Assembly (NCBI RefSeq): GCF_002943755.1
Contig: NZ_MQUB01000001.1
Coordinates: 1,352,501 to 1,416,500 of the forward strand
Direction of reading: 5' to 3'
Length of the DNA: 64,000 bases
From: Aureitalea marina
GTDB lineage: Bacteria; Bacteroidota; Bacteroidia; Flavobacteriales; Flavobacteriaceae
The translations under genes were made by a program, and so were the position numbers. Below are positions 53,253 through 63,965 of the stretch, piece after piece. A model generated the notes under the pieces. That model made no database searches, was not told where the DNA came from, and was given only the letters and a program-made list of their open reading frames with translations. The first letter of the stretch is position 1; the number at the start of each line of letters is the position of its first letter.

Positions 53253-55180
53253 TCACAGGTCAAGACCAAAACCGAACCTGATATTTCTACCCGGAGTTTG
53301 GAAACGGTAAATTTCCTCATATTCAGTATCGGTAAGGTTAGTTAGCCCGGCAAAGAGCCTGAATTGTTCGCAAACGCGATAATTTACTCCCAGATCCAAA
53401 AGATTGAAGGAATCCAGGGTAACTATTTCGGAGGCAAAGGTCTCTGGATTGAAGAAGGAATCATCCCTCTCCCCTACGTATTGATAACTTAAACTCAGAT
53501 CCAACTTTTCAATAGGCATCCAGCTCAATCTGGCATTGGCCTTGTGCTCAGGGATCCTCAGTGCAAAACGCTCGTCCGCATCCGTATAGGTATAGTTGGC
53601 CGTCACTCTCCATTTTTGACCAAAGTTCTTGCTGGCTTCAACCTCTACTCCGCTGCTGCTAAATTCATCAGCGATATTCTGGTATTGGAAAATGAACAGA
53701 TCGGGATCGACGGTTACAAAATCGACAAACTGTTTATCCTTGCGGTCAAAATAGACCGCACTGAATCTCCAGTTTCCAGCCACCTGATATTCCAAGCCCC
53801 CTTCGATGGTTTGATTCTCTTCCGGCTGCAACTCGGTGTTCCCATAGAGCGGATCATAAAGCTGAAATAAGGAGGGGTAATGTATGCTGTGCTGTAGGAC
53901 GCTAAAATCCGCATCACTCCGGATCCCAGATCAAATCGGTAAGAAGGATTGACCTGATACACCCAATTTTGACCGTAATCGCTGTGATTGTTCATCCGCA
54001 CACCTGCATTGACGTTCAATCCAAAATCTGAGATATAGGTCAGGTTTAAATAAGGGTCTATGATATCGAAACGAGCCAAGTCGTCACTCACAGTTTCTTC
54101 CAGATCCGTTCCTCCAAAAAGAACACTGAATCCGCTAAATCGACTCCAGTTCGCATTAACTCCGACAAGAACGGTTAGAGACTGATGTACAGGATAACTG
54201 AAATAGGTGTCGAAGGTGCTGGAAGTTGACTCGAAGCGTGTTGGGAAGCCCGAATCTGTCTCCCGCTCTAACCAAGAATGACTATCATTCAATACCCAGG
54301 CCCCTTTGCCAAATTGCCAATTCAGATTACCTCCTGTACGCACCTGATCGGAGATCGTCCGATTATCGGCATCCACATAACTGAACTCATCGAAGTCCGC
54401 TTTAAACCGATCCTTGCTCACAAATCGGCTGATCTTGGGCCCGTTCTTAAACTGATATCCCAACTCCAAACGGGTGTTATATCGGTTAAAGATATCGGCC
54501 TCAAAAGCAGGCTCACCCTCCGGGGCCGCGACAGCAGATATCCCATCGGTAAAACGATGGTCCAACCGGATGTCATAGGAAAACCCACTACTGGTTCCAC
54601 CAATTTGGGCCGAGTTGACGATCTCTGCCGGCCCATATCCGCCTTCTTCTGTCGATCTGTTCGATGCCAAGGTAGAAGCGAATTGCCCGGAAATAGGGTC
54701 CTCTCCTACCTTTTTGGTAGTAATGCTGATCACAGCGGTTGCTGCTCCAGAACCGTACAAAACACTGGAGGCCCCTTTAATGATCTCAATTTGCTCTACG
54801 CTACTCGCCGGTATCAGCCTCAGGTCAAAATCGTTCGAAATAGAGGAAGGATCGTTCAGTTGGACACCATCTAGCATAATAACCACCTGTCTGTTCCGAC
54901 CACCACGAACATAATACCCCAGGTTTTGACCGGCATTGGAGCGTGCCCCATTGATCTCTATCCCCGCGACCTGATTGAGCACCTGCGCCAGGCTGTTTCC
55001 GGCTTGGGTAGATAGTTCCTCTTCTGAGATAATGGTTGTTACTCGTCCGCTATCCTGACGATCAAGATTGTTTTTAGATTCTATAAAAACAGAATCCAGT
55101 TGTTGAAGTTGGTTAATACTTTGAGACCAACCCAATTGAGCCACCACTAAGCAGGCAGCTGTCCATAATAAAGATTTCAT
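53253..55180 (-). pseudogene. TonB-dependent cobalamin receptor (BtuB-like), frameshifted
   Basis: The upstream frame gives signal peptide (to GWSQ), plug domain (IISEEELSTQAGNSLAQVLN; YYVRGGRNRQVVIMLDGVQL; EIIKGASSVLYGSGAATAVI) and much of the barrel up to YITPPYFSFMIRS. Near 53870 the frame must shift by -1 to go on with LFQLYDPLYGNTELQPEENQ and the barrel end (RNIRFGFGLDL). As it stands the protein stops at 53714, without the last strands. One T seems missing at CCTCCTTA. Restored length is about 640 residues, normal for BtuB. The cobalamin riboswitch upstream supports B12 as the ligand. Confidence 0.83.
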
Positions 55181-59844: not shown

Positions 59845-60198
59845 TTAGCGCCTGACTAGTTTAACGGTCATCCTCCTATTCCCAGATTGTACTTCCAGCA
59901 TATAGATGCCACTACTTAGATCTGAAGTATCTAACTCCAATTGTTTTAGCTGGCTACTACCTTCCCTAACTTGGGCTCCCAGGATATTGTAAATCCGGTA
60001 GGAATCAATAGATAGATTGGATGAGATCATCACTTTATCCGAAAACGGGTTGGGGTATACCTTTATCTGTAGGTTATCGGACTGATCCAGAACAGTTATT
60101 AGCTCACTTTTAGATACAGCAGTACTTGACTGAACCCCAGAATAAACGAGGCAGCTCAGTAGAAGGGCAAAACTAAAAATGGGTAATCTTCTGACCAT
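59845..60198 (-). CDS. Small T9SS protein: signal peptide plus type A sorting domain
   Basis: A 117-residue protein: signal peptide (to VQSS near residue 25), a short linker, then KVYPNPFSDKVMISSNLSID with YRIYNILGAQVREGSSQLKQ and GIYMLEVQSGNRRMTVKLVR, a full type A T9SS sorting domain. There is no passenger domain. It is either a remnant of a larger protein, a substrate with a tiny passenger, or a free domain that competes at the secretion machine. Confidence 0.82.
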   Translation of the reverse strand: MVRRLPIFSFALLLSCLVYSGVQSSTAVSKSELITVLDQSDNLQIKVYPNPFSDKVMISSNLSIDSYRIYNILGAQVREGSSQLKQLELDTSDLSSGIYMLEVQSGNRRMTVKLVRR

Positions 60199-60448: not shown

Positions 60449-60679
60449 ATGAAGAATCTAGTAATAGCGTTGGGGATACTACTAGTTATCCCCTCTAGTT
60501 TTTCTCAAGTGGGAATCAACGCAACAGACCCACAAAGAACAATAGATGTAAATGGTATGCTACGGGTTAGGGACCTAGTCCTGACCACGAATTACGAAAA
60601 AAACAACAATAGTGGATCGTTCGAACTATTCTACAATGGTACCCTGCAGTGTTGGGGGGTGATTAATAACACCAAGTAA
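60449..60679 (+). CDS. Miniature member of the tandem VGINTT/LDVNG secreted family
   Basis: A 76-residue protein: signal peptide (MKNLVIALGILLVIPSSFS), head motif QVGINATDPQRTIDVNGMLR and VRDL, then directly GSFELFYNGTLQCWGVINN. This end matches the very end of the 62476 paralog (GSMEFVYDSLAGRWYLIS), so the central ~130 residues of the family are missing in frame. It is either a truncated relic or a functional short form. First gene of a five-member array on the plus strand; the gap 60199-60448 before it is AT-rich and holds no other gene. Confidence 0.65.
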   Translation: MKNLVIALGILLVIPSSFSQVGINATDPQRTIDVNGMLRVRDLVLTTNYEKNNNSGSFELFYNGTLQCWGVINNTK

Positions 60680-60833
60680 CAACCGCAAAACCAAGGAGAT
60701 AATCGGGTCGTCGGAAGTTGACCTCATACAATTCTTACCGACGACTACCGATTATCGAGTTCTTAAGATTGGTCCACGACACATATTACTTTAATCATAA
60801 AATTTAAATTTTTTGCACAAAAGCAGTTAGGAG

Positions 60834-61466
60834 ATGAAAAAGATTACACTATTAGCCGCTATCGGTCTCTATTCATTTTGTCTTACCGCCCAAGTAGGTA
60901 TAAATACGACAAACCCTCAAAGAACCCTCGATGTCAATGGGAAAATAATGATACAAGATCTTGGCCGCTCCAGTACCGGTGAGACCGGGGTTAAAATGTT
61001 GCTCACAGAATCTGATGGAACCGTTCTGGGAGCTGATCTACCAGATGAATTCAGTCTGACAGACGGTGGTGAATTGAAAGTCAGTCTTGGTTCAGCAACG
61101 ACAGAGAAAATTGTCCTTAGCGCAGAGACATTTGACACCAAAAACAACTGGGACCTGGACCTGGATGGCGACAATACTGATGTAACAATGATTATCATCC
61201 GTAAGGCATCCGGTGGAGGAGAACTCAAGATCCGAGGCATACAGGGAGGTACAGATGGACGCAGGATACAAATAATAAATGATTCTGGCTACAACATCAA
61301 GTTTGAAGAAGACAAAGCGGAAGCAGATCCTGGCAATAGAATCTATATCTATACGGATGATGACAAAATGGACGATTATGGGGCTTGTGTCTTGGTGTAT
61401 TCGACCGCTATTTCCGATTCAGGAGGTCATTGGAACCTGATCCAACTGGATGAGAATAAAGACTAA
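60834..61466 (+). CDS. Tandem secreted family member 2
   Basis: The protein has 210 residues: signal peptide (MKKITLLAAIGLYSFCLTA), head motif QVGINTTNPQRTLDVNGKIM, a middle part DGGELKVSLGSATTEKIVLS with an aspartate-rich DLDLDGDNTDV, and the tail IRGIQGGTDGRRIQIINDSG then VLVYSTAISDSGGHWNLIQL. The head is like the VGIxTT...LDVxG start of many Bacteroidota surface and fibre proteins, and the tail GGTDGR...W like a beta domain in those proteins. No T9SS tail or S74 peptidase is present. Function unknown. ATG follows a conserved AGCAGTTrGGA. Confidence 0.72.
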   Translation: MKKITLLAAIGLYSFCLTAQVGINTTNPQRTLDVNGKIMIQDLGRSSTGETGVKMLLTESDGTVLGADLPDEFSLTDGGELKVSLGSATTEKIVLSAETFDTKNNWDLDLDGDNTDVTMIIIRKASGGGELKIRGIQGGTDGRRIQIINDSGYNIKFEEDKAEADPGNRIYIYTDDDKMDDYGACVLVYSTAISDSGGHWNLIQLDENKD

Positions 61467-61610
61467 TTGAGATCTTCCTTTATACGCAGGTCTTAGAAAA
61501 ACATGGTAACAGAATTCAGTGATTTCTTTCACTATGTAACCGTTAATCGTATTTATCCGCTCTTTAACCAAACCATTTAGTTATTTCATAACCAATTGCA
61601 TAATTTTGAG

Positions 61611-61618
61611 TCAATAAG
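61611..61618 (+). promoter_or_regulatory. -7 box TAATTTTG of tandem family member 3
   Basis: Exact TAnnTTTG match, ten bases before the ATG at 61629. The intervening AAGCAGTTGGGAC is kept before members 2, 3 and 4. Confidence 0.4.
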
Positions 61619-61628
61619 CAGTTGGGAC

Positions 61629-62252
61629 ATGAAAAATCTTTTGATTATCCCCATTTTAGGTCTCTGCACGTTTAATCTTATTGCCCAGGTAGGGATTAAT
61701 ACCACAAACCCACAGAGAACCCTAGATGTCAATGGGAAAATAATGATACAAGATCTTGGCCGCTCCAGCACGGGAGAGACCGGGGTTAAAATGTTGCTCA
61801 CAGAATCTGATGGAACCGTTCTGGGAGCTGATCTACCAGATGAATTCAGTCTGACAGACGGTGGTGAATTGAAAGTCAGTCTGGGTTCAGCAACGACGGA
61901 GAAAATTGTCCTTAGTGCAGAGACATTTGACACTAAAAACAACTGGGACCTGGACTTGGATGGCCACAATAGTGATGTTACCGTTTTTATCATCCGCAAG
62001 GCGTCTGGAGGTGAACTCAAGATCCGGGGCATACAGGGAGGTACTGAAGGTCGACGGATTAGGCTCATAAATGATTCCGACGCCAAAATAAAATTCGAAG
62101 AGGATAAAGCCGAGGCGACCGATGGGAATAAGCTCTACATTTATTCTTCGGAAACAGAAATGAACAGATACGGTTCTTGCTTGCTCATATATTCTACCGC
62201 GATCTCCACCTCCGGCCATTGGAATATAGTACAAATGGAATCTACAGATTAA
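61629..62252 (+). CDS. Tandem secreted family member 3
   Basis: The protein has 207 residues from ATG 61629, with signal peptide (to NLIA) and head QVGINTTNPQRTLDVNGKIM. It is nearly the same as member 2 up to the middle: a 107-base block is identical in both genes (60981-61087 and 61776-61882). The tail differs more (IRGIQGGTEGRRIRLINDSD; LLIYSTAISTSGHWNIVQME). Frame extends to 61596 but the first residues there match no other member. Recent duplication or gene conversion between members 2 and 3 is evident. Confidence 0.72.
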   Translation: MKNLLIIPILGLCTFNLIAQVGINTTNPQRTLDVNGKIMIQDLGRSSTGETGVKMLLTESDGTVLGADLPDEFSLTDGGELKVSLGSATTEKIVLSAETFDTKNNWDLDLDGHNSDVTVFIIRKASGGELKIRGIQGGTEGRRIRLINDSDAKIKFEEDKAEATDGNKLYIYSSETEMNRYGSCLLIYSTAISTSGHWNIVQMESTD

Positions 62253-62475
62253 ATAGATCTGCACCCTGTAGCCATTTTTAGATTTGCAAGTTGTATTCCT
62301 TTTATTATTGGGACCAAATCTTCTCCAACAAAACAGGGATGGTAAAAAGTAGTTACTTTTCCTACAAACCGCGGTATGTTTTCGTCTTTTTTTACACTTT
62401 AACGGATAAGTTATAACTCAAGAGATAATTCCCTTAAATTGCTATAAATAAAGCAGTTGGGAAATGAAATAATTT

Positions 62476-63087
62476 ATGCTTTTGGCCGTAATCGGCCTCC
62501 TCTCGCTGGGTGGTACCGCCCAAGTAGGAATTAACACTACAGATCCTCAAAGAGACCTTGATGTGAATGGTAAATTAATGGTAAGAGACCTTCGCAGGAC
62601 CAGCTCAGGTTTGACAGGTGTAAAAGCCCTTTTTACCGAAGCCGACGGTACCGTGGTAGGCGCCGAATTACCTTCTGAGATCAATATTACAGATGGGGGC
62701 GGGCTTGAGATAAATGTGAACTCAGGCGGAGCCAAGATGTATCCCATTGGGCGCGTAACCGTGTCAACCCCCAATGCTGCTAATGACACTTTTGATGACT
62801 TTGATCTCGAATTGGGCTCTACTAATGAAGATGCCGTGGTGTTTATACTGGATGGTGCTACACGCAATTTCTCCATTACGGGTATTGACGGAGGTACAGA
62901 CGGTAGGCACATTATTATTGTGAATACGACAAGTCATCAAATGAACATAAGTAACCAAGACGGTGATTCGCAGGCGGCTAACCGCATAATCGTTCTGGGT
63001 GATGATAGAACCACACAAGAGGGATCGATGGAGTTTGTTTATGATAGTCTCGCCGGTCGCTGGTATCTTATAAGTGTGGAGAATTAG
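62476..63087 (+). CDS. Tandem secreted family member 4, original start cut by a stop codon
   Basis: The family-type start is ATG 62464 (behind AAGCAGTTGGGAA), but codon 3 is TAA (62470-62472) where the family has a Lys codon; one base change from AAA. Translation can begin again at ATG 62476, giving 203 residues: MLLAVIGLLSLGGTAQVGIN, which keeps the hydrophobic core of the signal peptide but loses its positive start. Head, middle (SINITDGGGLEINVNS-like) and tail (GIDGGTDGRHIIIVNTTSHQ; MEFVYDSLAGRWYLIS) are intact. Export may be weaker. Confidence 0.65.
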   Translation: MLLAVIGLLSLGGTAQVGINTTDPQRDLDVNGKLMVRDLRRTSSGLTGVKALFTEADGTVVGAELPSEINITDGGGLEINVNSGGAKMYPIGRVTVSTPNAANDTFDDFDLELGSTNEDAVVFILDGATRNFSITGIDGGTDGRHIIIVNTTSHQMNISNQDGDSQAANRIIVLGDDRTTQEGSMEFVYDSLAGRWYLISVEN

Positions 63088-63293
63088 GACCTTACTTCTT
63101 TCCTGTTCCATCTTTTACCAAAAATCTTTACAGTGAGAAGTCTTCTCATCTAAGCTGAATTGCAATTCGTCTACACTTAATTACTCTTTAGCGACAATTG
63201 AGCACCCCCGTTCTTGTCCATCTTAATTTTGTACTGTATCTAAAAGTAGAGTCATTTCTGCTCGAGAGAGCTGAAAAAGAAAGCAGGAACAGC

Positions 63294-63965
63294 ATGAAAA
63301 AAATCAACTTAATAAGCTTGTCGCTAATAATGAGTTCCTTTACTGCACTAGCTCAAGTCGGAATTAATACGACTGACCCTCAAAGGACACTTGATGTCAA
63401 TGGTAAACTTCGTGTAAGAGATCTGGATCCAACCGGAGCCGGTTTTTCCGGAGGACGCTTTCTATACCAAGAAGCCGACGGAACAGTAGTTGGAGTTGGT
63501 GGTGGTAGCGATATCAGTATTGATAGCGGTGGAGACATTAATATCACCAATAGCGGAGGCGGCGGAAGCACCACATTCGTTGTGAGAGCAATCGATCTTG
63601 GTGGTGTGAGCGGCGATGTAGACGATTTGGATCTCGACCTAGATGGAGCAAATGCAGATGTGAATATGTTTATCCTACAAAATTCCAGTAATGATATAGA
63701 TCTAACGGGAATTCAAGGAGGTACAGAAGGTAGGCACATCATTATATTGAACGATACCGATGACGATATTGATATCGAGTTCAATGACAACGGTTCGAGT
63801 TTAGGAAATCGAATACTCCGATTTATAGAGCACGATAAACTACGAAAAAATAACAGTTCCGGCAGAACCCGGGATGGACAAGGATCGGTCTCGCTGGTAT
63901 ACACAACTGAGGTAACGGGTTCAGGCCGTTGGATCGCTTACCAAATGGATCGCGGAGACGACTAG
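63294..63965 (+). CDS. Tandem secreted family member 5
   Basis: The protein has 223 residues from ATG 63294: signal peptide (MKKINLISLSLIMSSFTALA), head QVGINTTDPQRTLDVNGKLR and VRDLDPTGAGFSGGRFLYQE, a glycine- and aspartate-rich middle (GGGSDISIDSGGDINITNSG; GDVDDLDLDLDGANADV), and the tail TGIQGGTEGRHIIILNDTDD then VSLVYTTEVTGSGRWIAYQM. The acidic repeats may bind calcium. The frame upstream to 63198 has no match in the family. The array may continue past the right edge. Confidence 0.7.
   Translation: MKKINLISLSLIMSSFTALAQVGINTTDPQRTLDVNGKLRVRDLDPTGAGFSGGRFLYQEADGTVVGVGGGSDISIDSGGDINITNSGGGGSTTFVVRAIDLGGVSGDVDDLDLDLDGANADVNMFILQNSSNDIDLTGIQGGTEGRHIIILNDTDDDIDIEFNDNGSSLGNRILRFIEHDKLRKNNSSGRTRDGQGSVSLVYTTEVTGSGRWIAYQMDRGDD

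What the first reader, a model, noticed from the sequence alone, without database searches (positions are those of the whole stretch)
60449..63965. Tandem array of five small secreted paralogs with fibre-like head and tail motifs
Five consecutive genes share signal peptide, QVGIN[TA]T[DN]PQR[TD][LI]DVNG head and, in four, a GGT[DE]GR..W tail. The head resembles the LDV start common in Bacteroidota surface and phage fibre proteins, but these proteins are only about 200 residues and lack T9SS tails, S74 chaperones or coiled coils. The middle of the proteins varies most. Such an array, next to a T9SS-tail-only protein, could be a set of variable surface or released proteins (adhesion, matrix, or competition).
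Basis: partly seen in the sequence, partly recalled or inferred. Interest (0 to 1): 0.68.

Follow-up and report, generated by a model that had tools for sequence, protein, structure and literature searches.

The report
Array of mini phage-fibre-like secreted adhesins
Five side-by-side genes in a Flavobacteriaceae bacterium encode small, probably exported proteins that look like cut-down phage tail fibres (a shared head known from three-stranded fibres plus an exchangeable binding tip), one set of a common but little-described kind of probable surface-binding protein.

Summary
The array is real: five genes at 60449-63965, four head+tip proteins (203-223 aa) and one 76-aa copy lacking most of the tip. 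It ends at the window edge (carB follows); a sixth copy lies elsewhere in the genome.

The QVGINTTxPxxxLDVNG head matches the capping-loop motif of trimeric fibres: a 25-head profile finds Bdellovibrio MAT (mosaic adhesive trimer) protein Bd2133 in the PDB at E 5e-9; reversed heads find nothing. The tip is a confidently predicted beta-sandwich resembling phage fibre/spike domains.

The head is mosaic: 159 tails of short head proteins fall into 20 groups (8 of them single proteins), among them C-type-lectin-like and BclA_C-like tails, with 30 tandem arrays. Among 30 genomes checked beside carB, copy number is 0, 1, 2 or 5. Copies 2 and 3 share a near-identical head+middle (conversion-like tract), while signal peptides and tips diverged.

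Best reading: exported 'mini-MATs', single-node trimeric binding proteins with swappable tips. Shown: anatomy, head match, tip fold, mosaicism, copy variation. Inferred: trimerisation, location outside the cell, ligand. Not MAT members (no ~130-aa N-domain, no long stalk). My paper searches found no description. New variant of a known kind.

The parts
60449..60679 (+). Copy 1, 76 aa: signal peptide + head, then only a remnant resembling the last tip strands
   Evidence: remnant matches tip profile positions 87-115 at E 0.085, not significant alone
60834..61466 (+). Copy 2, 210 aa: signal peptide + head + linker + tip
61629..62252 (+). Copy 3, 207 aa: signal peptide + head + linker + tip
   Evidence: ATG 61629 aligns with its paralogs
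62476..63087 (+). Copy 4, 203 aa: head + linker + tip; signal peptide without charged n-region
   Evidence: structure predicted
62464..62475 (+). ATG AAA TAA TTT: start codon aligned with paralog starts, closed by a stop at codon 3, upstream of copy 4
   Evidence: in-frame stops also reported by searches
63294..63965 (+). Copy 5, 223 aa: signal peptide + head + linker + tip
60503..60646 (+). Head-profile region of copy 1
60888..61031 (+). Head of copy 2 (VGINTTNPQRTLDVNG)
61683..61826 (+). Head of copy 3
62518..62661 (+). Head of copy 4
63351..63494 (+). Head of copy 5
61089..61460 (+). Tip domain of copy 2
61884..62249 (+). Tip domain of copy 3
62740..63084 (+). Tip domain of copy 4, predicted beta-sandwich, pLDDT mostly above 90
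63567..63959 (+). Tip domain of copy 5
60916..61155 (+). Conversion-like tract in copy 2 (partner in copy 3): 230/240 identical

Best explanation
The array encodes single-node, trimeric, fibre-like binding proteins ('mini-MATs'). Each is exported by Sec; signal peptidase I would cut before the conserved Q (the Bacteroidota Q-rule). The mature protein starts directly with the capping-loop motif VGINTTxPxxxLDVNG, which in solved fibres sits at the edge of an intertwined trimeric beta-helix, so three chains are expected to pair through the head and short linker and to display three C-terminal beta-sandwich tips. The tip binds a surface epitope, most likely a glycan. Tandem copies give one cell several tips on one head; recombination between copies can homogenise head and linker while tips diverge. 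Shown: anatomy, head match to solved trimeric fibres, tip fold (predicted), mosaic tails on one head, copy-number variation at one locus, conversion-like tract. Inferred: signal-peptide cleavage, trimerisation of these proteins, passage beyond the periplasm, ligand and biological role (adhesion or recognition).
For: Head profile A4 (25 heads) against PDB sequences: 8ond Bd2133 E 5.4e-9, 8ojn E 1.8e-6, then 7dc3 MyRF 0.035 and 8ol4 0.054; a profile of 12 exactly reversed heads: 0 matches up to E 10. The MAT paper names Bd2133 as a MAT, describes the capping-loop motif and reports finding MyRF with it (passages, PMC10769870); that 8ojn and 8ol4 are MATs too is my inference from their molecule name and entry series. 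Tip: AlphaFold2, 96 residues of copy 4 at pLDDT >=90; structural matches 6o38 Z 8.2, Pa223 capsid spike 7.9, Solidus gp83 depolymerase 7.9, TSP4 of CBA120 6.1, T4 gp10 5.1; Foldseek PDB, 8 chains at E <=0.001, all 6o38, Pa223 or TSP4; viral models, best E 1.5e-10; tblastn of copy 4 to 'tail fiber protein' of 4 similar phage records, 37% identity over residues 119-199, E 9e-7. Mosaic: 160 short head proteins, 159 tails in 20 groups, 30 tandem arrays; one tail is Lectin_C, E 4.5e-6; below the Pfam cut-off BclA_C E 5.6e-8 and Gp10_C E 0.0031. Solved MATs use TNF/C1q-like and C-type-lectin tips (section 14 read). Copy number 0/1/2/5 beside carB. Tract: 230/240 identical.
Against: No trimer could be modelled; the head region is predicted with low confidence as a monomer (10-residue means 43-60). 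There is no beta-helix stalk, S74 chaperone or N-terminal anchor domain, so the head might be only a folding cap. No export signal beyond the signal peptide, so the proteins could stay in the periplasm. The tip profile finds no PDB sequence below E 0.32, and the C-terminal 80 residues of copy 2 find no phage record up to E 1. Z about 8 or less can be a common arrangement (note); the best-ranked solved match (6o38; recalled as the CpaA protease complex) and StcE (4dny) are not phage proteins. Six of ten tail representatives have no Pfam hit. No genetics or proteomics.
Confidence: 0.55

Rival explanations
1. Receptor decoys: secreted phage-fibre-like tips coat the cell or its neighbours and block the sites that phages bind, so the array is an anti-phage device.
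For: Tip is a phage fibre/spike-type domain. Flavobacterium columnare phages carry small signal-peptide + head genes near the end of their genomes. Copy number varies between relatives.
Against: No PADLOC model matched the three copies scanned. Flanking genes are rmuC and carB, not defence or phage genes. Several subfamilies recur in fixed neighbourhoods. The phage proteins read share the head, not this tip.
Confidence: 0.12
2. Extracellular matrix or cell-envelope structural subunits: trimers that pack or cross-link polysaccharide, without specific recognition.
For: Small exported proteins; several conserved paralog groups at recurring loci; a BclA_C-like tail in one relative (BclA as a spore-surface fibre protein is recalled).
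Against: A lectin-like tail in one group and fibre-tip folds point to binding; tips differ strongly between copies of one array (27-69% identity).
Confidence: 0.18
3. Degenerating fragments of old phage or surface fibres without function.
For: Copy 1 lacks most of its tip, copy 4 lost its aligned start, the two 2-kb steps over the array have GC 0.40 and 0.43 against 0.42-0.50 elsewhere in the window.
Against: Open frames kept in four copies; in the 2/3 pair dN is below dS throughout: 0 against 0.16 in the tract, 0.22 against 3.0 (saturated) in the tip, 0.40 against 0.92 in the signal peptide; head+tip relatives in at least 25 of 397 genomes.
Confidence: 0.08
4. Toxins or competition factors released to neighbours.
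For: Exported, tandem, differing C-termini; two chance-level Pfam hits of copy 4 carry effector or protease names (Avr2 E 0.079, StcE_b-sandwich E 0.33, both under cut-off), and the tip fold also resembles StcE (Z 5.2).
Against: No toxin family above cut-off in Pfam, NCBIfam or PADLOC, and only families of unknown function or 'tail protein' in PHROGs; no further gene fits between the copies for immunity.
Confidence: 0.04

Closest known systems
Bdellovibrio mosaic adhesive trimer (MAT) fibres, NS74 type (Bd2133, 8ond)
   Same: Signal peptide; capping-loop motif; C-terminal beta-rich or lectin-like tips exchanged on a common N-terminal part; several paralogs per genome
   Different: MATs are typically ~1,000 aa with a ~130-aa N-terminal domain and a long stalk; here the whole mature protein is about 190-205 aa, has one motif, no N-domain and no stalk, and genes are tandem
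Phage tail fibre / spike modules (Pa223 capsid spike 9ny6, Solidus gp83 24qj, TSP4 of CBA120, T4 gp10; Pfam Phage_depo_C weakly in 2 of 21 members)
   Same: Tip fold; one 37% identical stretch in phage tail fibre proteins
   Different: Chromosomal, with signal peptides, no virion genes next to them
Myelin regulatory factor (7dc3)
   Same: One copy of the same capping-loop motif, weak match (E 0.035)
   Different: Animal transcription factor with S74-type chaperone (from the MAT paper and recall); no tip
PHROG 9563 / 13535 (phage proteins of unknown function)
   Same: Signal peptide + head, matched by 20 and 18 of 21 members
   Different: Only about the first 40-50 residues of the window copies match

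Membership tests
MAT (mosaic adhesive trimer) family | Capping-loop motif of trimeric beta-helix | tested here: met
   Head profile to 8ond E 5.4e-9, 8ojn 1.8e-6; reversed control 0 matches
MAT (mosaic adhesive trimer) family | Conserved ~130-aa beta-rich domain right after the signal peptide | tested here: not met
   Mature proteins begin with QVGINTT; no room for the domain (definition from passages)
MAT (mosaic adhesive trimer) family | Long beta-prism/beta-helix stalk | tested here: not met
   One motif and about 60 residues of linker before the tip
MAT (mosaic adhesive trimer) family | Exchangeable C-terminal binding tips | tested here: met
   20 tail groups on the head, one of them Lectin_C; binding itself not tested
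MAT (mosaic adhesive trimer) family | Trimeric assembly | not testable with these tools
   Only single-chain prediction available
Phage tail fibre | Encoded among virion genes | tested here: not met
   Flanked by rmuC and carB
Phage tail fibre | Fibre/spike-type beta-sandwich | tested here: met
   by predicted fold and one weak sequence match
Type IX secretion cargo | C-terminal sorting domain | tested here: not met
   Por_Secre_tail found in the neighbour 59848-60198, none in copies 1-5
S74 fibre proteins | C-terminal S74 chaperone | tested here: not met
   No hit in the copies; the genome's one match is in another protein
Q-rule Sec/SPI substrates of Bacteroidota | Q directly after the signal peptide | tested here: met
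   Q invariant in alignments; rule from abstract of PMC5837995; cleavage itself not tested

The most novel reading that the evidence does not exclude
Flavobacteriaceae (and some of their phages) use an undescribed modular system: one minimal trimer-forming head fitted with a dozen or more exchangeable tips, kept in tandem arrays that grow, shrink and recombine, giving each lineage its own set of secreted receptor-like binders, used for recognition or as decoys against phages, with the phage-type-tip subset also sharing an RNA-level signal (C-runs) at the translation start.
Probability: 0.3. Interest if true: 0.8.

Novelty: new variant of a known kind. Interest (0 to 1): 0.56.

Why it matters
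Small proteins with this head are common in the flavobacterial loci looked at, and neither the head nor this tip has a Pfam or NCBIfam family in my searches. Linking the head to solved trimeric fibres gives these proteins a testable structure and function, suggests that MAT-like tip swapping is not a speciality of predators (the MAT paper itself hints at other bacteria), and offers small (about 20 kDa) candidates for soluble trimeric binders that could be expressed and screened on glycan arrays.

Tried and rejected
Prophage remnant: rejected on flanking genes (rmuC, carB) and signal peptides. Defence system: PADLOC no hit for the three copies scanned. T9SS cargo: no CTD. Simple recent tandem amplification: rejected in part; in a 52-row tree (copy 1 left out, no tip) the four full-length copies need two changes against the other labelled rows, copies 2/3 group with the genome's distant copy and a G381 protein (100/99), copy 5 with G113/G315 (89/83, not starred); the tree has 11 open forks and is rooted at the midpoint.

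Tip by sequence against the PDB: nothing below E 0.32. Promoter/terminator scans: at or below chance, so no operon statement is made. Weak Pfam hits (KH_1, Avr2, StcE_b-sandwich and others) treated as chance. A second tail class (27 proteins) was folded (mean pLDDT 60); its matches include discoidin II and Helix agglutinins (recalled as H-type-lectin folds) and phage tailspikes, but at Z 5.0 or less with unrelated folds tied and weak viral matches: inconclusive. Chains not listed in a fold search are not excluded. A scan of viral contigs with the five-row full-length alignment gave 1 relative of 29 pattern matches, matched over query residues 8-39 only. Paper searches for the motif letters found 0 papers; other paper searches (listings seen) showed no description of this family; the library lacks most subscription papers, so absence in print is limited to those searches.
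Full report
What is there. The window holds five same-strand genes at 60449-63965. Copies 2-5 are 203-223 aa: signal peptide, QVGINTTxPQRxLDVNG head, a linker of about 60 residues, and a C-terminal domain with GGT[DE]GR, a late Y and a final W. Copy 1 (76 aa) keeps signal peptide and head and then only a stretch resembling the last tip strands (tip profile positions 87-115, E 0.085), as an internal deletion would leave. Copy 4's start codon aligned with its paralogs is followed by a stop at codon 3; the next ATG gives a signal peptide with no charged residue at its start. In the 20 upstream codons printed for 46 head+tip genes, a few others have an ATG closed by a stop, but farther off (for example L131, L145, L162), and one other gene (L138) also lacks a charged residue in its first 15. 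The array stops at the window edge; carB follows in the opposite direction. It has one more head+tip gene near 412 kb of the same contig, several proteins with weaker heads, and one S74 protein.

Known families. Pfam and NCBIfam have no family above cut-off for copies 1-5; among the 21 full-length relatives aligned in A3, NCBIfam found none at E 0.01 and Pfam only scattered weak hits (two members to Phage_depo_C, best E 0.011). PHROGs 9563 and 13535, of unknown function, match 20 and 18 of 21 members, in the window copies over the first 40-50 residues.

The head. A profile of the whole family found Bdellovibrio Bd2133 in the PDB at E 0.0013; a profile of 25 heads raised this to 5.4e-9, with 8ojn at 1.8e-6, MyRF 7dc3 at 0.035 and 8ol4 at 0.054. 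The other four rows up to E 10 are a solute-binding protein (0.05), TonB (0.62), MyRF 5yhu (0.71) and a fatty acid-binding protein (0.79). Twelve exactly reversed heads match nothing up to E 10. The MAT paper (PMC10769870; passages and section 14 seen) describes a capping-loop motif at the edge of the trimeric beta-helix and reports MyRF as a PDB match to it. The consensus string as printed in the held text has one position fewer between G and P than these proteins have, so I rely on the profile match, not on the string.

The tip. With the 21-row alignment, AlphaFold2 gives 96 residues at pLDDT 90 or more, all beta, in the last 110 or so residues of copy 4; the head and linker are low (10-residue means 43-60), which a trimeric head folded as a single chain might also give. 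VIA-align ranks 6o38 (Z 8.2, 96 residues, 2.8 A), Pa223 capsid spike (7.9), residues 609-700 of the Solidus gp83 depolymerase (7.9), Klebsiella phage KP1 baseplate (6.5), TSP4 (6.1), StcE (5.2), T4 gp10 (5.1), then a gap to 3.5. Foldseek against viral models gave 82 matches at E 0.001 or better; of the 50 rows shown, most are tailed-phage proteins, many uncharacterized, the named ones mainly tail, fibre, minor tail or collagen-like proteins, and a few are giant-virus proteins. tblastn of copy 4 to phages: 4 similar records, 'tail fiber protein', 37% over residues 119-199; the C-terminal 80 residues of copy 2 found none.

Relatives. In 397 genomes of the family (own included), 155 have some match to the A3 profile at E 1e-5, many of them to the head alone, and at least 25 have a nearly full-length one (profile positions 7 or lower to 196 or higher; listing, which is cut, counted; only the best 8 candidates of each genome were scored). 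Head+tip genes fall into several old subfamilies, some in recurring neighbourhoods (an AlaDh_PNT_N gene and a hybrid histidine kinase; beside an RNA polymerase Rpb1-type gene).

Same locus, different number. Two relatives have head+tip genes in the same RmuC-carB setting: one copy in G388 and two in G255 (gene names by Pfam). In the 30 genomes with the best CarB matches, 3 have the genes within 1.5 kb of the carB match (window 5 in all, G255 2, G388 1) and 27 have none, including G221 of the same genus as G388. The T9SS-tail-only gene at 59848-60198 follows rmuC, as a plastocyanin-like (Copper-bind) protein with such a tail does in G255; in G388 that gene stands a few genes further on. Similarity is 29% and confined to the tail, so that it is a truncated ortholog rests on position.

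Mosaic. Among ORFs in the loci used, 160 unique short proteins carry the head near the N-terminus, 53 of them with this tip; 159 tails (one too short) form 20 groups by single linkage at E 1e-3, 12 with two or more members and 8 single; 30 tandem arrays of 2-6 genes hold 83 of the 160. Loci were picked by head or tip, so this is not a census. Ten proteins from nine groups in Pfam: one Lectin_C above its cut-off, BclA_C E 5.6e-8 and Gp10_C E 0.0031 below theirs, DUF4397 weak, six without a hit, among them a second member of the BclA_C group. One locus has three genes with this tip behind a diverged head and another linker (L162).

Recombination. Between copies 2 and 3, 230 of 240 bases (60916-61155) are identical; 62 of 90 just before; 26, 21 and 28 of 30 in the next three blocks, then 137 of 221 (sums of the blocks). 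By codons: dN 0, dS 0.16 in codons 30-105; dN 0.40, dS 0.92 in the signal peptide; dN 0.22, dS 3.0 (saturated) in codons 111-210. Head and linker were thus homogenised while the ends stayed apart. This fits gene conversion or unequal crossing-over and gives no sign of positive selection on the tip in this pair; other pairs were not tested.

How it probably works. I commit to exported trimeric mini-fibres that bind a surface epitope through the tip, probability about 0.55; steps shown and inferred are marked in the best explanation. They are not MAT members, since the N-domain and the stalk are lacking, but they probably work like the tip end of a MAT.

Side observation. Head+tip genes have a run of four or more C near the start codon in 28 of 52 cases, against 12 of 145 other signal-peptide ORFs of the same loci and 17 of 113 head genes with other tails (the last not significant against the 145, p 0.11); runs of G: 2 of 52, 2 of 145, 4 of 113 (Fisher 5e-11 for the first, relatedness not corrected). 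Positions vary from -42 to +41, which argues for an RNA signal. In the window only copies 1 and 3 have it.

Noticed in passing
52 head+tip genes in fetched loci; window copy 1 (+41) and copy 3 (+20): Runs of four or more C within 45 bases of the start codon in 28 of 52 head+tip genes against 12 of 145 other signal-peptide ORFs of the same loci; positions vary, so perhaps a small-RNA or RNA-binding-protein site.
   Followed up: partly
L164 12068-12325, L165 8626-9069, L220 496-939 (Flavobacterium columnare phages FCV-1, FCOV-S2, V156): Phages carry a signal peptide + head gene near the genome end: 147 aa in FCOV-S2, a gene of the same length under the same match in V156 (not read), while FCV-1 has an 85-aa fusion with the end of the last gene. 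PMC5524643 (passages) reports extra DNA at the genome end in later, broader-host-range phages; whether this gene matters is unknown.
   Followed up: partly
62464-62475: ATG-AAA-TAA-TTT before copy 4: a stop at codon 3 of the start aligned with the paralogs; not seen at the aligned start of the other 45 head+tip genes printed.
   Followed up: partly
59848-60198: T9SS-tail-only protein lies where relatives have a plastocyanin-like protein with a T9SS tail; perhaps a truncated remnant.
   Followed up: partly
53714-55180: TonB-receptor ORF (488 aa, minus strand) with only a Plug domain hit, beside an ABC transporter; short for a receptor, possibly frameshifted at its C-terminal end (by reading only).
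   Followed up: partly
L078, L085, L088, L089, L094, L141: Recurrent head-protein triplets (two triplets in L094) with one shared tail class; weak structural resemblance to lectin and phage tailspike entries.
   Followed up: partly
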